Below the pieces are notes generated by a model. The model was not told the origin of the DNA and made no database searches. It was given only the letters and a program-made list of their open reading frames with translations. Shown here in pieces: positions 31,771 through 40,697 of a stretch of DNA of 64,000 bases (positions are counted from its first letter, which is position 1; every line of letters begins with the position of its first letter). Origin of the DNA: Cryobacterium fucosi (GTDB lineage: Bacteria; Actinomycetota; Actinomycetes; Actinomycetales; Microbacteriaceae); assembly GCF_004403515.1 (NCBI RefSeq), contig NZ_SOHH01000039.1:1-64000 (forward strand). The letters are read 5' to 3'. A program made the translations under genes and the position numbers.

Positions 31771-31918
31771 CTCGACAGGCTCGACTACCGAGTCTGTCGC
31801 TGCCGAACGTGACGGAGATCGAGCCTGTCGAGCGGAGATCGAGCCTGTCGAGCGGAGATCGAGCCTGTCGAGCGGAGATCGAGCCTGTCGAGATCTCGAC
31901 AAGCTCGATCACCGCGAG
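31771..31918. repeat. dispersed repeat block between rpsK and rpoA
   Basis: Begins TCTCGACAGGCTCGACTACC and continues into four tandem 20-base units GGAGATCGAGCCTGTCGAGC at about 31814-31893, ending with inverse GATCTCGACAAGCTCGATC. The block reaches the rpsK stop at 31923. Left and right parts are inverted relative to each other, so the rpsK-rpoA transcript folds here. Confidence 0.88.
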
Positions 31919-32850: not shown

Positions 32851-32955
32851 GTGTCTCGACAGGCTCGACATCCGAGACGGGGCTCGAGCACCACTGCGGT
32901 GATCGAGCACCACTGCGGTGATCGAGCACCACTGCGGTGATCGAGCTTGCCGAGA
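32851..32955. repeat. dispersed repeat tract between rpmJ and rpsM
   Basis: Starts GTCTCGACAGGCTCGACATC, then three tandem copies of the 19-base unit CGAGCACCACTGCGGTGAT from 32885 to about 32941, ending GATCGAGCTTGCCGAGATC just at the rpmJ stop codon. The unit itself contains a small hairpin (ACCACTGCGGT). Confidence 0.88.
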
Positions 32956-33135: not shown

Positions 33136-33357
33136 TTACTTGTAGCGGTAGACGATCCGGCCGCGAGTCAGGTCGTACGGGCTCAGCTCCACGATCACGC
33201 GGTCCTCAGGAAGGATGCGGATGTAGTGCTGACGCATCTTGCCCGAAATGTGGGCAAGAACCTTGTGGCCGTTGGTCAGCTCAACACGAAACATCGCGTT
33301 GGGAAGAGCTTCGACTACTGCGCCCTCGATTTCGATGACACCGTCTTTTTTTGCCAT
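33136..33357 (-). CDS. infA: translation initiation factor IF-1
   Basis: 73 aa OB-fold protein that binds the A site during initiation. [40 protein letters not shown] and [15 protein letters not shown] match the whole family length. It has its own promoter upstream, in line with its separation from map by the mannitol cluster. Confidence 0.98.
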
Positions 33358-33449
33358 AACTCACTATCGCTAGGGTATTGATTGCTGGTCGTGCGTGGAT
33401 TGTGGCGCCTTGACACGCCGAAAGCGACGGCATCAGACACCAAGGATTT

Positions 33450-33479
33450 ACTCTATGGTATGAAGTTGCGATTTGCCAA
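33450..33479 (-). promoter_or_regulatory. probable infA promoter
   Basis: On the minus strand TTGGCA (33474-33479), 18-base spacer, TAGAGT (33450-33455), about 90 bases before the infA ATG. The region 33358-33542 is A+T-richer than its flanks and lies just downstream of mtlD, so infA-rpmJ-rpsM would be transcribed independently. Confidence 0.55.
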
Positions 33480-33542
33480 TTCACGCCTATAATCCTCGGA
33501 GTTCCGACGCCGTCGCCGGGATTGTGCACTACAGCCTGTGTC

Positions 33543-34694
33543 TTACAGCCGGTCCTGGGCCGCGCTGACGACCTGCACCACGTCGGCGAAGAGCGGATGC
33601 GCGGGGTCGAGACCGCAGACCTGCCCGGCGAACGCCTCCGGGGTCTCGGAGCGCAGCATCCGTTGCAGTTCGACGCTCTGTTCGTCGTCGGGCACGTCGA
33701 ACCGCAGGGCGGCGCCGATCGCCACGAGCAGAGCCGTCGGGCGCGTGCCGTGCTCGGCGATCTCCGCCGCCGGCCCGATGAACCGTTCGTAGCGGCTGAG
33801 CTTGCGCATCGGCTGGCGCCCCACCCGCCGGGCCGTGTCCGGCAGTGCGGGGTTGGCGAAGCGCACCAGGATCTTCTCCCGGTAGGCACGCTGCGCCGCC
33901 TCGTCGAGGCCATGCTTGGCCACGAGCAGAGCGGAGGTCTCCTCGAGCACGCGGCGGGCCCCCTCCCGGACCTCCGGCACCGCGAGGGCGTCGGAGATCC
34001 GGGAAACTCCCGCCAACGAGCCGAGGTAGGCCACCGTGGCGTGTCCGGTGTTCACGGTGAACAGCTTGCGCTCGATGTAGGGCGCAAGGTTGTCGACGAA
34101 GGTCGCACCGGGGATGACCGGCGCGGAGTCGCCGAAGGCGCCGCGCTCGATCACCCACTCGTAGAAGGCCTCGACGGTGACGTCGATGCCCGAGCCGGCC
34201 GCCTGGCCGGGCACGATTCGGTCGACCGCGGTGTTGGCGAAGGCGGCCTTCCGGGCGAGGGACTCCCGTTCCTCGGCGGACACGTCCTTCCAGACGTGCC
34301 CGGCGAGCACGTCGGTGGCGTTGATCGCGTTCTCGCAGGCCATCACGGCGAGCGGCGCGAGCCCCGCCGCCCTCCGTTTCAGGCCGGCGAGGATCACCGG
34401 CGCCACGAACGGGAGCACCGTCGGCCCGACAGCGGTCGTGACGATGTCGGCCGTCGCGATTTCTTCGATCAGCCTCTCTTCCTCGGCGCGGCTGTTGATG
34501 GCGCGGAAGTCGTCGACCACGCGGTCGGTCGACGTCTCCCCTGCCTCGTGGACGGTGTAGCTCGTGGCGGCCTGCAAGGCCTCGATCAGGGAAGCATCCA
34601 CATCGGCGAAGACAACCTCGTATCCGGCATCGTGGAGAAGGAGACCGACGAATCCGCGGCCGATGCTGCCTGCGCCGAAGTGGATGGCTTTCAT
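33543..34694 (-). CDS. mtlD: mannitol-1-phosphate 5-dehydrogenase
   Basis: 383 aa. Oxidises mannitol-1-phosphate to fructose-6-phosphate with NAD+. Rossmann motif MKAIHFGAGSIGRGFVG at the N terminus, CENAINATDVL and YIERKLFTVNTGHATVAYLG (with the catalytic Lys region) are those of MtlD. Overlaps the EIIA gene by 4 bases (ATGA). Last gene of the mannitol operon. Confidence 0.95.
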   Translation of the reverse strand: MKAIHFGAGSIGRGFVGLLLHDAGYEVVFADVDASLIEALQAATSYTVHEAGETSTDRVVDDFRAINSRAEEERLIEEIATADIVTTAVGPTVLPFVAPVILAGLKRRAAGLAPLAVMACENAINATDVLAGHVWKDVSAEERESLARKAAFANTAVDRIVPGQAAGSGIDVTVEAFYEWVIERGAFGDSAPVIPGATFVDNLAPYIERKLFTVNTGHATVAYLGSLAGVSRISDALAVPEVREGARRVLEETSALLVAKHGLDEAAQRAYREKILVRFANPALPDTARRVGRQPMRKLSRYERFIGPAAEIAEHGTRPTALLVAIGAALRFDVPDDEQSVELQRMLRSETPEAFAGQVCGLDPAHPLFADVVQVVSAAQDRL

Positions 34695-35131
34695 TCTGCG
34701 TTGACCTCCTCGAGGAGCGTGAAGATGTCCTCGGCCGTTGCCGCATCGATCAGTTTCTGCACCTCGTCCTCGTCGGAGAAGACGACGGCGATTTTCGAGA
34801 GGATCCCGAGGTGCTCATTGTTGAGGCCGGCGATGCCGACGGCGAACCGCACGGGCTGCCCGTCCCAATCGATCGGGTCGGGATAGCGCACCAGCGACAG
34901 GGATGACCGGATGATCGATTCCTTGGCCTCGTTCGTGCCGTGCGGGATGGCGAGGAAGTTGCCCATGTAGGTCGACACGCTCGCCTCCCGGTCGAACATC
35001 GAGTCGACGTAGGCGCTCGTCACGGCGCCGGCCGCCACGAGCAGGGTGCCAGCCTCGCGGATCGCCTCCTGCTTCGTGGTGGCCGTGCCGGCGGCCACCA
35101 CGTTCCCGCGTTCCAGGATGTTCTGAGTCAT
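34691..35131 (-). CDS. mtlF: mannitol-type PTS EIIA component
   Basis: 146 aa. Carries phosphate from HPr to the mannitol EIIB domain. Active-site His64 lies in FLAIPHGTNEAK; VRFAVGIAGLNNEHLGILSK follows as in MtlF. Translational overlaps of 4 bases with the EIICB gene upstream and mtlD downstream suggest tight coupling. ATG 35129-35131. Confidence 0.95.
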   Translation of the reverse strand: MTQNILERGNVVAAGTATTKQEAIREAGTLLVAAGAVTSAYVDSMFDREASVSTYMGNFLAIPHGTNEAKESIIRSSLSLVRYPDPIDWDGQPVRFAVGIAGLNNEHLGILSKIAVVFSDEDEVQKLIDAATAEDIFTLLEEVNAE

Positions 35132-36618
35132 CGTGTTGCTTCCTCCGCCGCTCTGCTCTGCAGCAGGGTGACGACCTCGTCGTATTTCGGGCTGTTCATG
35201 AAGTTGTCCACCGAGACGAAGATCGAGTCCGGCGACTTGGCCTTCGCGCGGGCGGTCAGGTCCTGGTGCGTGATGACCAGGTCGGCCGTGCCGTCGAGGT
35301 TCGCGATGGCCTGGTTGACCACGGTGATGCCCTCGAGCCCGGCCTTCTTGATCTTGTTGCGGAGCACGGATGCACCCATGGCACTCGAGCCCATGCCGGC
35401 GTCGCAGGCGAAGACGATGTTCTTGAGGGGGCGGTTGTCGGCCGCGGCGGTTCCCGCTCCGGCTCCCGCTCCGGCGAGGCCGCCGAGGACGCTGCTGGAC
35501 TTGCCTTTCATGGCCTCGGTCTTCGCGACGGCCCCGGTGAGGTCGCCGTCGAGGCCGTTGGCGATGTCGCGCTTGCGGCTGGACCGCAGGATGACCGCGG
35601 CGATCAGGAACGACACCGTTGCGGAGAGGATCACGGAGAGGATCACGCCGACGTAGCTGTCCGACGCGGTCTGGATGAGAACCGCGAAGATGCTGCCGGG
35701 TGAGGCAGGAGCGCGCAGGCCGGTCTGGAAGGCCACGTTGGTCGCCACGCCGGTCATGCCGCCGCCGATGGCCGCGAGGATGAGGATCGGCTTCATCAGC
35801 ACATACGGGAAGTAGATCTCGTGGATGCCGCCGAGGAAGTGAATGATGATCGCGCCGGGCGCGCTCGCCCGGGCAAGGCCGAGACCGAAGAACGAATAGG
35901 CGAGCAGGATGCCGAGGCCGGGGCCGGGGTTCGCCTCGATCAGGAAGAGCAGCGACTTGCCGGATTCCGAGACCTGCTGAACGCCGATCGGCGTGAACAC
36001 GCCGTGGTTGATGGCGTTGTTGAGGAACAGCACCTTGCCGGGCTCGACCAGGATGCTCGCCAGCGGCAGCAGGTTGTTCGAGACGAGCCAGTTGACGCCG
36101 GTCTCCAGCACGGAGCTGAAGGCGGTCACGACGGGCGCGATTCCGAAGAATGCTCCGAGCGCAAGGATGCCGCCGAGGATGCCGGCGGAGAAGTTGTCGA
36201 CGAGCATCTCGAAGCCGGGCTTGATCTTGCCGGCCCACAGGCTATCGAGCTTCTTGAGCAGGTACGCGGACAGCGGGCCCACGAGCATGGCGCCGATGAA
36301 CATCGGGATCTCGCTGCCGACGATGACACCCATGGTGGCGATCGTGGCGATGACGCCGCCGCGGATGCCGTAGACCATCCGGCCACCGGTGTTGGCGATG
36401 AGCAGCGGGAGCAGGTACACGATCATCGGGCCGACCATCTTGGCGACGGTTTCGTTCGGGGTCCAGCCGGTGGGAATGAAGAACGCGGTGATGAGGCCCC
36501 ACGCGATGAACGCCGCGATGTTGGGCATGATCATTCCGCTGAGGAAGGTGCCGAAACGCTGAACGTGCACGCGGGCTCCCCCGCTCTTGTTCTCTGTCCC
36601 GGTTGACGTCGTCGTCAT
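35128..36618 (-). CDS. mtlA: mannitol PTS EIICB transporter
   Basis: 496 aa. Membrane transporter that imports and phosphorylates mannitol. The IIC domain spans about 18-345 with the GGIHEIYFPYV motif (264-274). A Gly/Ala-rich linker (378-394) leads to the IIB domain with active Cys405 in VFACDAGMGSSAMGAS. A IIA domain is absent and supplied by the next gene. Start ATG 36616-36618 has GAAAGG upstream; the open frame to 36735 lies in the gap and over the HPr gene and is not used. Confidence 0.95.
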   Translation of the reverse strand: MTTTSTGTENKSGGARVHVQRFGTFLSGMIMPNIAAFIAWGLITAFFIPTGWTPNETVAKMVGPMIVYLLPLLIANTGGRMVYGIRGGVIATIATMGVIVGSEIPMFIGAMLVGPLSAYLLKKLDSLWAGKIKPGFEMLVDNFSAGILGGILALGAFFGIAPVVTAFSSVLETGVNWLVSNNLLPLASILVEPGKVLFLNNAINHGVFTPIGVQQVSESGKSLLFLIEANPGPGLGILLAYSFFGLGLARASAPGAIIIHFLGGIHEIYFPYVLMKPILILAAIGGGMTGVATNVAFQTGLRAPASPGSIFAVLIQTASDSYVGVILSVILSATVSFLIAAVILRSSRKRDIANGLDGDLTGAVAKTEAMKGKSSSVLGGLAGAGAGAGTAAADNRPLKNIVFACDAGMGSSAMGASVLRNKIKKAGLEGITVVNQAIANLDGTADLVITHQDLTARAKAKSPDSIFVSVDNFMNSPKYDEVVTLLQSRAAEEATR

Positions 36619-36670
36619 TTTTCTGCCTTTCGTTTCGGTTGTGATTGTGCGGGGATTGTGTGCATTCGGA

Positions 36671-36943
36671 TCACGCCTGGGCGTCGTGGTCCGTGGTGAG
36701 CAGGGCGGCGAGGGAGGCGAGCACGAGGTCGGCATCGGCTCCCTCGGCGGTCAGGGTGACCGCGTCACCGAAGTTGATGCCGAGCGAGATGACTCCGAGG
36801 ATGCTTGCCGCGTCCACGACCGTGCCGCCGTTGGCGGCCAGCGTGACCTCGAGGCCGGAATCGGAGGCCGCCTGCGTGAACAGCCTCGCCGGGCGGGCGT
36901 GCAGCCCGTGGGTCGATCCGATCAGAACGGTGCGTTCAGCCAT
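36671..36943 (-). CDS. ptsH: HPr family phosphocarrier
   Basis: 90 aa. General PTS phosphocarrier. Active His15 in THGLHARPA, and AASILGVISLG holds the Ser at the regulatory position (Ser47). As no EI gene is seen in the window, EI must be encoded elsewhere. ATG 36941-36943; a start 8 codons upstream is possible. It is placed between the small EIIB-like gene and mtlA in one operon. Confidence 0.93.
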   Translation of the reverse strand: MAERTVLIGSTHGLHARPARLFTQAASDSGLEVTLAANGGTVVDAASILGVISLGINFGDAVTLTAEGADADLVLASLAALLTTDHDAQA

Positions 36944-37005
36944 CGGCGTGTTTCCTTTCTCGTGCAATTTCGTTCTCCCTCGGTCTCGGTGGAGTCAGGG
37001 GGTGG

Positions 37006-37311
37006 TCAGCCGGTCAGAGCGTGGAGCGCCGCATCCAGCGCCTCGTTTCCGTCCCGTGCGGCGAAGATCGTGGCCGGGAGCAGCGAGCAGCCGGCGCCCG
37101 CCCGTTCGGCCTGGGCCGTGAACTCGTCGAAGCGGGGAGCAAGGTGCGGCCCGACCAGGAGCACGTCGACGCCGTCGAGGGCGTCCGGCAGGTCCGACTC
37201 GCTGCCCGCCGACACGTCCAGGTCGAGGCCGCGGGCGGCAGCGGTCTGGCGTATCCGGAGGGCCACGAACGTGCTGGACGCACCGGCACCGCAGACAACC
37301 AAAATCCTCAT
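37006..37311 (-). CDS. small PTS EIIB-like protein, copy 1
   Basis: 101 aa. MRILVVCGAGASSTFVALRI places a phospho-Cys at position 7 and fits the lactose/cellobiose-type EIIB fold; SESDLPDALDGVDVLLVGPH and APRFDEF follow. Closely similar over its whole length to the gene at 39399-39728. As MtlA already has its own EIIB domain, the job of this stand-alone one is open: it may serve another EIIC, or relay phosphate to the PRD regulator. First gene of the mannitol operon and divergent from mtlR. Confidence 0.85.
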   Translation of the reverse strand: MRILVVCGAGASSTFVALRIRQTAAARGLDLDVSAGSESDLPDALDGVDVLLVGPHLAPRFDEFTAQAERAGAGCSLLPATIFAARDGNEALDAALHALTG

Positions 37312-37461
37312 CGATTCACCTTCCAGTAGCGCTGAACCCAGTCTTGCCAGATCGTCCGAATCGGGCCACCACATCCCTTTCCGCACCCCCGGAAACGGGT
37401 CTGAGCGGTCCGATCGGGTCAGGCGTGGTTGACTACAAGCGGATTGATGGAGCTGTGTGCA
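37312..37461. promoter_or_regulatory. divergent promoter region of the mannitol genes
   Basis: 150 bases without coding signal separate the EIIB-like gene (minus) from mtlR (plus). TTGACT at 37429-37434 might be a -35 for mtlR, but no good -10 follows, so the promoters are not placed. MtlR would be expected to act here. Confidence 0.4.
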
Positions 37462-39375
37462 ATGAGCGATAAACAGACACGGATGCTGGACTACCTGTCC
37501 CAGACGCCGGCCTGGGTCACCGCCGGCGAGCTTGCCGACCTCCTGGGCGTCACCCCTCGCACCGTTCGCAGCTACATCACGACGCTGAAGGCGGCCGCGC
37601 ATCCGCTGGAGGTCGTCGAATCGGGCGCCGCCGGCTACCGGCTCGACCTGGAGGCCTACGCCGCCCACCGGGCAGCGCGCCGCACGTACTCCGAACCGGA
37701 GACCCCGCGGAACCGGCTGTACGCCCTCGTGCGGCGGCTCACCGAGGCGGAGGCCGGGCTCGACGTCTACGACCTGTCCGAGGAGCTCTTCGTCAGCGAC
37801 TCCACCGTCGATGCCGACCTGGCCAAGGTCAGGCAGTTGCTTCCGGACACCGGGCTCACCCTCAGCCGCCACGGCAGCGTGGTCACCCTCAAGGGCTCCG
37901 AGACCGATCGCCGCCGCCTTCTCAGCCGGATGTTCCGGGAGGAGAGCTCCCGCGGACTGCTCGAACTCGAGGCGATCCAGAAGGAATTCGCGTCCGAGAG
38001 CCTGGGGGCGTTCAAGACCGACCTGATCGCGATGCTCGACTCCCAGGGCTACTTCGTCAACGAGTACGGCACCAACGACGTGCTGTTGCACGTTGCCATC
38101 GCGATCGACCGGGTGACCAGGCGCACCGCCCCCGTGTTCGCCAGCGCCCCCAGCGGCCCGCCCGACGACATGACCCTGGCCCTCTCCGCCCTGGTCACGC
38201 GACATTTCCAGGTGGAACTGGGCAGCGGGGACCTCGACTACCTGGCCCTGCTCCTGAAGACCAGGGTGATCACGCCCGGCCAGGACCAGCCGGCCGCGGT
38301 GCTGATCGAAAGCTTCGTGCGCACGGAAGACCTCGAATCGGTGCGCCGGATCGTGGGCCAGGCCGGCGAGGAGTTCCTGGTCGACCTGGTCGAGGAGAAC
38401 TTCATCGTTCGCCTGACCCTGCACGTTCGCAACCTGATCAACCGCGCGCAGGACCGCTCGTACTCACACAACCCGCTCACCCGGTCGATCAAGACGAGCT
38501 ACCCGATGATCTACGAGCTGGCGGTGTACATCGCCAGCTCCCTCCAGCGCCAGGAGAACATCGTCATCAACGACGACGAGATCGCGTACATCGCCATGCA
38601 CGTCGGGGCGCACCTTCAGCAGCAGTCCCGCCGCGAGGACCTGGTGAGCTGCGCCCTGGTCTGCCCGAACTACTACGACATGCACGTGCTGCTGCGGGAG
38701 CGCATCGAACGGGTGCTGGGCGACGAGCTCGAAGTGGTCTCGGTGATCACCCGCAGTGATGTCGAATGGGTCGGGATCGATGCGGACCTCGTGCTCACCA
38801 CCATCGACCCGGCGGTGCCCTCCGAGGGCGTCATCGTGATCCAGCCGTTCCTCACCGAGGGCGACATCGAACGGGTCCGAAAGGCCGCCAGCCGCATCCG
38901 CCGGATGCGTCGCCGCGCCCACCTCAAGGACGATCTGCTGCAGTTCTTCGACGAGTCGTTGTTCTCGCACAATTTCTACGCCGCCGACGAGAGTGCCATG
39001 ATCAGGGCCCTCGGCGAGCGGATGCTCATGCAGGGCACCATCGGCCAGGACTACATCGACGGCGCCATCGAGCGCGAGCTGATGTCGTCGACGGCGTTCA
39101 CCGATAATCTCGCCGTGCCGCATTCGATGTCGATGACGGCCAACCGCACGTCCATCGCCGTCGTCGTCAACGACTCCCCGATGGACTGGGGTGAGAACCG
39201 AGTGAACGTGGTGGCCCTGGTGGCGTTCAGCAAGGAAGGGCGCCGCAGTTTCCAGGCCGTCTTCGACCAGTTCGTCGAGGTCTTCTCAGACCGGGCCGCC
39301 GTGCAGCGGCTGGTGAAACGATCGGTGGACTTCGCTTCCTTCATCGACGAGCTCGTCCATCTGATGGATCAGTAA
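37462..39375 (+). CDS. mtlR: MtlR-type PRD transcriptional regulator
   Basis: 637 aa. Phosphorylation-controlled activator of PTS operons, BglG/MtlR family. N-terminal HTH (WVTAGELADLLGVTPRTVRS at about 17-36) and a second HTH-like block (DLSEELFVSDSTVDADLAKV). PRD domains follow (HVAIAIDRV; YIAMHVGAHLQQQ), then a EIIB-like part and a C-terminal EIIA-like domain with AVPHSMSM. ATG 37462 is preceded by GGAG at proper distance; ATG 37447 and a GTG at 37429 are alternatives. Flanked on both sides by EIIB-like genes on the other strand. Confidence 0.9.
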   Translation: MSDKQTRMLDYLSQTPAWVTAGELADLLGVTPRTVRSYITTLKAAAHPLEVVESGAAGYRLDLEAYAAHRAARRTYSEPETPRNRLYALVRRLTEAEAGLDVYDLSEELFVSDSTVDADLAKVRQLLPDTGLTLSRHGSVVTLKGSETDRRRLLSRMFREESSRGLLELEAIQKEFASESLGAFKTDLIAMLDSQGYFVNEYGTNDVLLHVAIAIDRVTRRTAPVFASAPSGPPDDMTLALSALVTRHFQVELGSGDLDYLALLLKTRVITPGQDQPAAVLIESFVRTEDLESVRRIVGQAGEEFLVDLVEENFIVRLTLHVRNLINRAQDRSYSHNPLTRSIKTSYPMIYELAVYIASSLQRQENIVINDDEIAYIAMHVGAHLQQQSRREDLVSCALVCPNYYDMHVLLRERIERVLGDELEVVSVITRSDVEWVGIDADLVLTTIDPAVPSEGVIVIQPFLTEGDIERVRKAASRIRRMRRRAHLKDDLLQFFDESLFSHNFYAADESAMIRALGERMLMQGTIGQDYIDGAIERELMSSTAFTDNLAVPHSMSMTANRTSIAVVVNDSPMDWGENRVNVVALVAFSKEGRRSFQAVFDQFVEVFSDRAAVQRLVKRSVDFASFIDELVHLMDQ

Positions 39376-39390
39376 CCGCCCGAAGGACCG

Positions 39391-39410
39391 GCCGCGGCTC
39401 AGACCGCGGC
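39391..39410. terminator. weak hairpin between mtlR and EIIB-like copy 2
   Basis: GCCGCGG - CTCAGA - CCGCGGC, a 7-bp perfect stem, starts 15 bases after the mtlR stop and covers the last codons of the convergent EIIB-like gene. Could end mtlR transcription; no T run. Confidence 0.3.
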
Positions 39411-39728
39411 GTCCACCCAGCTACGGGACCTGAAGGCGTAGATCGCCGCGTCGAGGGCTTCGTCGCCGTTCTGAGAGGCGAAAACCGTGTCCGGCAGGAG
39501 GGCGATGCCGACGCCAGCCTTGATCGCCTGCGACCGGATCTTCTCGTAGCGGGGCGCCAGGTGCGGGCCGACGAGCAGCACATCGATCGGCCCGAGCGAG
39601 CCGGGGAGGTCGGATTCGCTTCCCGCGTGCACTGACACGTCGAGGCCGCGCTCGGTCGCCGTGTGGCGGACGCGGTGGGCCACGAAGGCGCTGGAGGCTC
39701 CGGCACCGCAGACGACGAGGATCTTCAT
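39399..39728 (-). CDS. small PTS EIIB-like protein, copy 2
   Basis: 109 aa. MKILVVCGAGASSAFVAHRV with phospho-Cys7; SESDLPGSLGPIDVLLVGPH and APRYEKI match copy 1 closely, plus a 7-residue longer end (SRSWVDAAV). Lies 23 bases past the mtlR stop on the other strand and 138 bases downstream of map, so it is likely to have its own promoter. A duplicate of copy 1 by sequence. Confidence 0.84.
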   Translation of the reverse strand: MKILVVCGAGASSAFVAHRVRHTATERGLDVSVHAGSESDLPGSLGPIDVLLVGPHLAPRYEKIRSQAIKAGVGIALLPDTVFASQNGDEALDAAIYAFRSRSWVDAAV

Positions 39729-39866: not shown

Positions 39867-40697
39867 CTACTGGATGGGCATCGGGATGATGCCCAGGGGC
39901 GCCAGGCCGGCGGCGCCGCCGTCTTCCGCGGTGAGCACCCAAATTCCGTCCTTGTGCACGGCGACGCTGTGCTCCCAGTGCGCGGCGGCCAGGCCGTCGC
40001 TGGTCGCGACCGTCCAGTCGTCGTCACGCACGTACGTCTCAATCGAACCCAGCACGACCATGGGCTCGATCGCGACGACCAGGCCCGGCTTGACGTCCGG
40101 CCCCTTCTGCCGCACCCGGTAGTTGAACACCGGAGGGGCCTCGTGCATGGACCGGCCGATGCCGTGGCCGACGTAGTCGGTCAGGATCCCGTACTGGCCC
40201 TGGGCTTCGACATAGTCCTCGATGGCTTCGCCGACCTCGTTCAGGTGGCGCGCGACCGCAAGCCGGGCGATGCCGTGCCAGAGGGACTGCTCGGTCACGG
40301 CCGACAGCTTCTGGCGCTCCGCCACGAGCTCGGGTCGGGTCGGGTCGGGAATGACGAAGCTGAAGGCCGCGTCGCCGTTCCAACCGTCGAGGATGGCGCC
40401 GCTGTCGATCGACACGAGGTCACCGGCGGCGAGGATGCGTCTCCCGGGGATGCCGTGCACGACGTCGTCGTTCACGGACGCGCACACCGTGTGGTGGTAG
40501 CCCTGCTCGAGTTTGAAGTTCGGCTGTCCCCCCAGCGCCAGGATGGCGTCCTCCGCGGCGACGTCGATCTCCAGCGTGGTCGCCCCGGCGCGGATCGCGG
40601 CGCGGGCCGCATCGAGCGACGCGGCCGTCGCCAGGCCCGGTGCGAGCATGAGTCGCATCTGCGCCGGCGACTTGTAGATGGAACGTCGAAGGCTCAT
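39867..40697 (-). CDS. map: methionine aminopeptidase type I
   Basis: 276 aa. Removes N-terminal Met from new proteins. Metal ligands are visible in SIDSGAILDGWNGDAAFSF (two Asp), GHGIGRSMHE (His), IEPM (Glu) and WEHSVAV (Glu). Start ATG 40695-40697 (MSLRRSIYKS). Follows adk after 67 bases in the usual secY-adk-map order, but infA does not follow: the mannitol cluster is there instead. Confidence 0.95.
   Translation of the reverse strand: MSLRRSIYKSPAQMRLMLAPGLATAASLDAARAAIRAGATTLEIDVAAEDAILALGGQPNFKLEQGYHHTVCASVNDDVVHGIPGRRILAAGDLVSIDSGAILDGWNGDAAFSFVIPDPTRPELVAERQKLSAVTEQSLWHGIARLAVARHLNEVGEAIEDYVEAQGQYGILTDYVGHGIGRSMHEAPPVFNYRVRQKGPDVKPGLVVAIEPMVVLGSIETYVRDDDWTVATSDGLAAAHWEHSVAVHKDGIWVLTAEDGGAAGLAPLGIIPMPIQ

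What the first reader, a model, noticed from the sequence alone, without database searches (positions are those of the whole stretch)
33543..39728. Mannitol PTS cluster splits the ribosomal superoperon between map and infA
secY-adk-map is normally followed directly by infA-rpmJ-rpsM. Here seven sugar-transport and regulator genes lie between, and infA has gained or kept its own promoter. Sugar supply genes next to highly expressed, origin-near ribosomal genes may gain high dosage.
Basis: partly seen in the sequence, partly recalled or inferred. Interest (0 to 1): 0.52.

Follow-up and report, generated by a model that had tools for sequence, protein, structure and literature searches.

The report
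Mannitol genes wedged between ribosomal operons
A block of mannitol-uptake genes does sit between two ribosomal gene units in this Cryobacterium, but many relatives carry it at the same spot, and infA has a conserved control region of its own there, so this is an old, shared gene order and not a recent break-in.

Summary
In detail: seven genes (EIIB-like, MtlR-like regulator on the other strand, EIIB-like, HPr, MtlA, EIIA, MtlD) lie between map and infA. The window is Cryobacterium (-free evidence: 11, 15, 32). The insertion is not local: among 119 family genomes with infA, mtlD lies upstream of infA in 38, from 26 of 85 genera, usually as map-mtlR(-)-eiib-hpr-ptsI-mtlA-mtlF-mtlD-infA. Named cases include Leifsonia, Clavibacter, Rathayibacter, Herbiconiux and Agromyces. 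In 139 genomes of other families of the order I saw none. infA's promoter and leader are alike with and without the block, so the block sits at an existing unit boundary that also takes other cargo. One old entry with many losses and moves fits best; repeated entry is not excluded. The dosage idea is weak. Side find: before infA in other actinobacterial families stands a covarying RNA without Rfam match.

The parts
39867..40697 (-). map, methionyl aminopeptidase type I, last gene of the secY-adk-map unit
   Evidence: TIGR00500 above cut-off
39399..39728 (-). eiibA: small lactose/cellobiose-type EIIB-like protein with CGAGASS site; two copies of eiib are found in 7 of 29 Cryobacterium loci and in the window
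   Evidence: PF02302 above gathering score; TIGR00853 below cut-off; copies counted; tree
37462..39375 (+). mtlR-like regulator (HTH_11, Mga, PRD, EIIA_2), divergent from eiibB
   Evidence: Pfam domains above gathering score; no NCBIfam model over its cut-off
37312..37461 (.). 150-base divergent intergenic region between mtlR and eiibB, likely mtl promoter and operator
   Evidence: position only; inference
37006..37311 (-). eiibB: second small EIIB-like protein, at the place where most family copies have theirs
   Evidence: PF02302; eiib present in 34 of 38 family copies
36671..36943 (-). hpr, phosphocarrier
   Evidence: TIGR01003 above cut-off
35128..36618 (-). mtlA, mannitol EIICB
   Evidence: TIGR00851 507 bits against cut-off 468; NF011663 663 against 589
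34691..35131 (-). mtlF, separate EIIA
   Evidence: PF00359 above gathering score; no NCBIfam model over its cut-off
33543..34694 (-). mtlD, mannitol-1-phosphate 5-dehydrogenase
   Evidence: NF002652 430 bits against cut-off 356
33450..33479 (-). infA promoter-like site TTGGCA-18-TAGAGT
   Evidence: similar sites in the family with and without the block
33358..33449 (-). infA 5' leader with TTGGTG, GACCAG and GCGAC..GAG blocks shared across the family
   Evidence: alignment of 41 family leaders picked by hand from 81 that a TTGG pattern had found
33136..33357 (-). infA, IF-1, first gene of the infA-rpmJ-rpsM-rpsK-rpoA-rplQ unit
   Evidence: TIGR00008 above cut-off

Best explanation
An inducible mannitol PTS module sits, in one orientation, at the boundary between the secY-adk-map unit and the infA-rpmJ-rpsM unit. 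Likely action (inferred from the families): MtlA, with MtlF and HPr, imports mannitol as mannitol-1-phosphate, MtlD oxidises it to fructose-6-phosphate, and the divergent PRD-type MtlR switches the operon according to PTS phosphorylation. infA need not depend on the upstream unit, because it has its own older promoter and leader, so the boundary tolerates cargo. The module most likely entered this site once, early in Microbacteriaceae. It was then lost in many lineages and moved elsewhere as a unit in others (Microbacterium, Plantibacter). In the window's lineage it lost ptsI and gained a second EIIB-like gene. Shown: gene content, gene order, distribution, and promoter conservation as sequence. 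Inferred: single origin, regulation, transport function.
For: 38 of 119 family genomes with infA have mtlD upstream of infA on the same strand; in 31 of the 38 it is under 300 bases away. 49 of 80 named loci (the best 80 of 518 that matched MtlD) hold adk or map, mtlD and infA together. Gene order is near-constant. The state occurs in many clades of a family tree built from 8 ribosomal-locus proteins. ptsI without mtl genes stands at the junction in G060, G063 and G101, which looks like a remnant; G060 and G063 are sisters of clades that hold the full block, G101 is not. Of 20 fetched loci with mtlD away from the junction, 10 keep the mtlR(-)-eiib-hpr-ptsI-mtlA-mtlF-mtlD order and 2 more differ by one gene; off-site copies nest among junction copies in the gene tree. 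The infA promoter and leader are alike with and without the block. A passage of PMC4128351 names infA among genes whose start sites share a -35 motif in both Mycobacterium species compared there.
Against: Equal-cost parsimony prefers 17 gains and no losses; a single gain with 28 losses wins only once a gain costs about 3 times a loss (128 rows, 52 with the block). Deep nodes of the mtl tree and the ribosomal tree disagree (for example Rathayibacter and Clavibacter), with weak support in places, so transfer by recombination in the flanks is not excluded. Of the 20 off-site loci, 4 have another layout and 4 show only mtlD. No expression data exist here.
Confidence: 0.72

Rival explanations
1. 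The map-infA boundary is an insertion hot spot, and the same module entered it several times, perhaps by homologous recombination between the conserved ribosomal flanks.
For: Equal-cost parsimony gives 17 gains. The boundary also carries a pabC-like aminotransferase, LytR-CpsA-Psr protein, glycosyl hydrolase 16, MFS, cyclase, TPP enzyme or DUF222 protein, and in G045 a signal peptidase beside mtlD. In 7 of 17 outgroup loci with both genes the map-infA gap is over 600 bases.
Against: Same orientation, near-identical gene order and a similar distance to infA in most; ptsI remnants, two of three beside clades that hold the full block.
Confidence: 0.25
2. The position is kept for gene dosage or high expression next to ribosomal genes.
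For: Junction copies are nearer the origin than off-site copies: medians 0.17 and 0.35 of the circumference, 8 against 11 positions, P = 0.001.
Against: About 1.28-fold at C/tau = 1; no codon-usage difference between 35 junction and 19 off-site genomes; many losses and moves.
Confidence: 0.08
3. A recent insertion particular to this strain or genus split a single superoperon.
For: None beyond the window itself.
Against: 26 of 85 genera share it; the infA promoter stands there without it.
Confidence: 0.02

Closest known systems
[quoted passage not shown] passages seen)
   Same: A small gene set enters between two operons of the ribosomal cluster in an ancestor, is inherited, and the new order is not kept in all descendants (tusDCB, bfd-bfr; ilv-leu genes in Sporolactobacillaceae).
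   Different: Those cases are in Gammaproteobacteria and Bacilli and at other junctions (rpoBC-str, str-S10); here it is Microbacteriaceae, the map-infA junction, and a regulated sugar PTS.
Mannitol PTS operon mtlA-mtlF-mtlD with MtlR (B. subtilis type; recalled)
   Same: EIICB, separate EIIA, dehydrogenase and a PRD regulator with PTS domains.
   Different: Adds HPr, usually EI, and one or two lone lactose-type EIIB-like proteins; the regulator is divergent at the start.

Membership tests
Mannitol-specific PTS | EIIC/EIICB of the MtlA family | tested here: met
   TIGR00851 and NF011663 over their cut-offs
Mannitol-specific PTS | EIIA of PTS_EIIA_2 type beside it | tested here: met
   PF00359 over gathering score; no NCBIfam equivalog passed
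Mannitol-specific PTS | Mannitol-1-phosphate 5-dehydrogenase | tested here: met
   NF002652 over cut-off
Mannitol-specific PTS | General EI in the same cluster (usual in this family, not required) | tested here: not met
   No ptsI match in the window's block; PF02896 matches, a domain EI shares with other PEP enzymes, lie on C99, C106 and C115
MtlR (PRD regulator of mannitol operon) | HTH, PRD and EIIA domains | tested here: met
MtlR (PRD regulator of mannitol operon) | Binds the mtl promoter and responds to mannitol | not testable with these tools
   needs experiment
Inherited insertion between ribosomal operons | Flanking operons contiguous in relatives without the insert | tested here: met
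   38 of 119 family genomes have map and infA under 600 bases apart
Inherited insertion between ribosomal operons | Shared by descent in a clade | tested here: inconclusive
   Wide distribution and constant order, but parsimony depends on the cost ratio
Known Rfam RNA (for the infA leader) | Match to an Rfam 15 family at gathering score | tested here: not met
   0 matches in the window and in 7 other loci

The most novel reading that the evidence does not exclude
infA of actinomycetes is headed by an undescribed structured leader RNA that regulates infA-rpmJ-rpsM on its own, possibly by binding IF-1, and this autonomy is what leaves the map-infA boundary open to cargo such as the mannitol block. 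Outside Microbacteriaceae the RNA has a conserved CCCCGCGGCUGG loop and covarying stems; the Microbacteriaceae leader would be a diverged form. IF-1 binding is a guess, and the family's own leaders do not match the model.
Probability: 0.3. Interest if true: 0.62.

Novelty: new member of a known kind. Interest (0 to 1): 0.4.

Why it matters
It adds an actinobacterial, family-wide case to the known insertions between ribosomal operons and shows a junction that accepts many kinds of cargo, probably because the downstream unit has its own promoter. The side find, a covarying RNA directly before infA in several actinobacterial families and without Rfam match, would open the regulation of initiation factor 1 in actinomycetes to direct test.

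Tried and rejected
Dosage and high expression: tested by dnaA distance and codon adaptation; at most a small effect. Recent insertion: rejected by synteny. Rfam families: none at gathering score in the window or 7 other loci; one sub-threshold chance match in 33300-33620. A fold shared by Microbacteriaceae infA leaders: the MAFFT alignment gave only five long-range pairs without covariation. A hand-made two-helix structure was 68.8% paired, reached by 93 of 500 shuffles on that measure, by 7 of 500 on covariation score and by 20 of 500 on pairs with changes on both sides; versions slid by 1-3 columns paired in 36-54% of cells. Whole-leader folding energy was near that of shuffles (mean z -0.39, 112 leaders; the first hairpin region -1.19). 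So structure in the window's own leader is not shown. Model R2 matched none of 14 family sources tried, window included, apart from a chance-level match at E 2.1 in L005; neither R1 nor R2 matched the window's genome. Resemblance of leader pieces to 16S rRNA (note) rests on recalled 16S letters and was not tested. That I found neither the arrangement nor the leader in print rests only on paper searches (listings) and passages, 86 of an open-licence library.

Weak points of the counts. The 41 leaders were picked by hand from 81 (one per genus) that had been found by a TTGG pattern, so the invariance of TGGTG there is partly by construction; 116 of 118 family upstream regions hold such a motif within 200 bases. 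dnaA was sought in 25 genomes and 22 were used; positions were copied by hand, and for G007 and G109 (two contigs) the contig length stood for the circle. The outgroup of the ribosomal tree was not one clade. Some genomes are present twice, unnamed and named (for example G078 and L172). Labels corrected: G022 was marked ptsI because its contigs end inside the block, and MTL; L173 was marked off-site although its block runs into infA. Rows dropped from the tree: G020, G054, G100, G072, G114, OUT_L136, OUT_L137. In the outgroup motif scan the loose pattern also hit L136 and L137 upstream of infA; I did not use these two. One antisense match of R1 in L125 was left out by a stricter threshold.
Full report
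What is there. On the - strand the window reads rplO-secY-adk-map, then seven genes, then infA-rpmJ-rpsM-rpsK-rpoA-rplQ. The seven are a small EIIB-like protein, an MtlR-like PRD regulator on the + strand, a second small EIIB-like protein, HPr, MtlA (EIICB), a separate EIIA and MtlD. MtlA, MtlD, HPr, map and infA pass curated NCBIfam cut-offs. The regulator, the EIIA and the two EIIB-like proteins pass Pfam gathering scores only. The finding's observation is confirmed.

Whose genome. A scan with MtlD kept the best 80 of 518 matching stretches; the four nearest are Cryobacterium at 90-94% identity. G078, which the genome search calls same genus as the window, has its block on a contig of 513577 bases, the length of a named Cryobacterium contig, L172. 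So the window is Cryobacterium. 26 of 29 Cryobacterium loci hold adk or map, mtlD and infA together; the other three are short contigs or cut by the flank limit (L159, L161, L173).

How widespread. In 120 family genomes (85 genera) I located map, mtlD and infA. 119 have infA. In 38 of 119 (26 of 85 genera) mtlD lies upstream of infA on the same strand within 12 kb, in 31 of these under 300 bases. In 38 of 119 map and infA are less than 600 bases apart; in 21 there is a gap of 600 or more without mtlD; in 22 map was not found beside infA and no mtlD is there. G058, in this last group, has mtlR, eiib, hpr, ptsI, mtlA and mtlF at the site with mtlD elsewhere. Fetched regions show the usual order map-mtlR(-)-eiib-hpr-ptsI-mtlA-mtlF-mtlD-infA, with a pabC-like gene after map in some. 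Of the 38, mtlR is found in 35, eiib in 34, hpr in 35 and ptsI in 31. In 149 genomes of the order, of which 139 are outside the family, 15 of the 139 have a strong mtlD match (E up to 1e-60) and none of these lies between map and infA; the nearest, G243, is about 10 kb downstream of infA.

History. A FastTree tree of eight ribosomal-locus proteins (145 rows) shows the block in many clades of the family but not in the earliest-branching small-genome groups g11, g14 and g81. With equal costs the fewest changes are 17 gains; with a gain cost of 3 or more, one gain and 28 losses. For a single entry speak the constant order and orientation, ptsI left without mtl genes at the junction in G060, G063 and G101, and off-site copies (Microbacterium, Plantibacter and others) that keep the order and nest among junction copies. 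Of 20 fetched off-site loci, 10 have the full order, L229 has it with an extra hpr, L234 lacks ptsI, four have a different layout with ptsI and hpr(-), and four show mtlD alone. Against: disagreement of deep nodes of the two trees, often with weak support.

Why the site is open. The bases before infA are alike with and without the block: a -35 like TTGGC[AG], a -10 like TAAGAT, TTGGTG a few bases later, then GACCAG and GCGAC..GAG blocks before ATG (41 chosen leaders aligned). Outside the family a -10-like box is also seen before infA in many of 20 loci (by eye). So infA begins a unit of its own, and the block lies just above that unit. Pfam on ten cargo proteins (one gave nothing) found LytR-CpsA-Psr, glycosyl hydrolase 16, aldo-keto reductase, MFS, cyclase, TPP enzyme, DUF222, signal peptidase S26 and aminotransferase IV. 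All but two lie between map and infA; the signal peptidase lies between mtlD and infA in G045 and the aminotransferase between map and mtlR in G043.

Window-specific points. The window's block shows no ptsI, as do 11 of 29 Cryobacterium loci. PF02896 matches are found on three other contigs, and the one on C106 lies beside what reads by eye as a fructose-type EIIC and an HPr (the third, C115, was not read). Two EIIB-like copies occur in 7 of 29 Cryobacterium loci and in the window. 100 of 107 EIIB-like copies (some genomes twice) carry the CGAGASS-like motif; six of the other seven differ by one or two letters and keep the cysteine, and one is a partial hit.

Dosage. dnaA and infA positions in 22 genomes put infA at 0.08-0.30 of the circumference from dnaA (dnaA searched in 25 genomes). 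Junction mtlD is nearer the origin than off-site mtlD, worth about 1.28-fold at C/tau = 1 by the usual formula (recalled). Codon adaptation does not differ.

Side find. In 5 of 20 loci from other families of the order, the region about 100 bases before infA carries GGCUCACGAGC...GUCC...GCCCCGCGGCUGG...GGC...GGAC...GUCAC.CGUG.GCC, with variations. A covariance model from these five matched 10 of 246 class genomes. Two of the ten gave training sequences; of the eight new ones, six matches lie directly before infA, one (G292) before rpmJ where infA was not found, and one (L254, in G313) at neither. A second model from 12 sequences matched 13 of 296; nine of the 13 were training genomes, and of the four others G141, G197 and G313 (now at another place, before a partial infA match) lie before infA and G368 does not. 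Both were strict-filter searches that lose weak matches. On the 12-sequence alignment 93.9% of cells pair, 24 cells change on both sides, no shuffle of 500 reaches either value (6 of 500 reach the eight pairs with a change on both sides), and slid controls fall to 30-45% paired. That alignment was fitted to the model, which favours the structure. Rfam has no match in the loci tried. The window's own leader does not match the model and shows no convincing fold.

Verdict. A real, conserved gene order at an operon boundary, of a kind already described in other phyla (PMC8046335, passages only). The RNA before infA in other families is the more novel lead and needs its own study.

Noticed in passing
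L125:8858-8942, L128:4902-4988, L139:4948-5030, L140:2154-2238, L142:8902-8983, L246, L248-L253, L255-L257: Covarying structured RNA element directly before infA (before rpmJ in L248, before a partial infA match in L257) in several actinobacterial families, loop CCCCGCGGCUGG, no Rfam match where tried.
   Followed up: partly
window 33358-33449 (-): infA leader of Microbacteriaceae has conserved blocks (TTGGTG, GACCAG, GCGAC..GAG) but no proven fold.
   Followed up: partly
window 31813-31892 and 32884-32946: Perfect tandem arrays (20 bases x 4.0; 19 bases x 3.3) in the rpsK-rpoA and rpmJ-rpsM gaps of the ribosomal operon.
   Followed up: no
window 39399-39728 and 37006-37311: Two lone lactose-type EIIB-like genes flank mtlR; role unknown, since MtlA already has its own EIIB domain.
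   Followed up: partly
L061, L063, L118: ptsI without mtl genes between map or adk and infA, apparently left over from the block.
   Followed up: partly
L006, L033, L037, L085, L099, L104: LytR-CpsA-Psr type gene at the map-infA junction (Pfam tested on L006 only; the others look alike by eye).
   Followed up: partly
family genomes such as G018, G021, G048, G066, G075: No canonical map beside adk; the best map matches listed for these genomes are relatives of 37-42% identity elsewhere.
   Followed up: no
L071, L153, L154 between map and mtlR: Long stable inverted repeats between the tail-to-tail genes map and mtlR.
   Followed up: no
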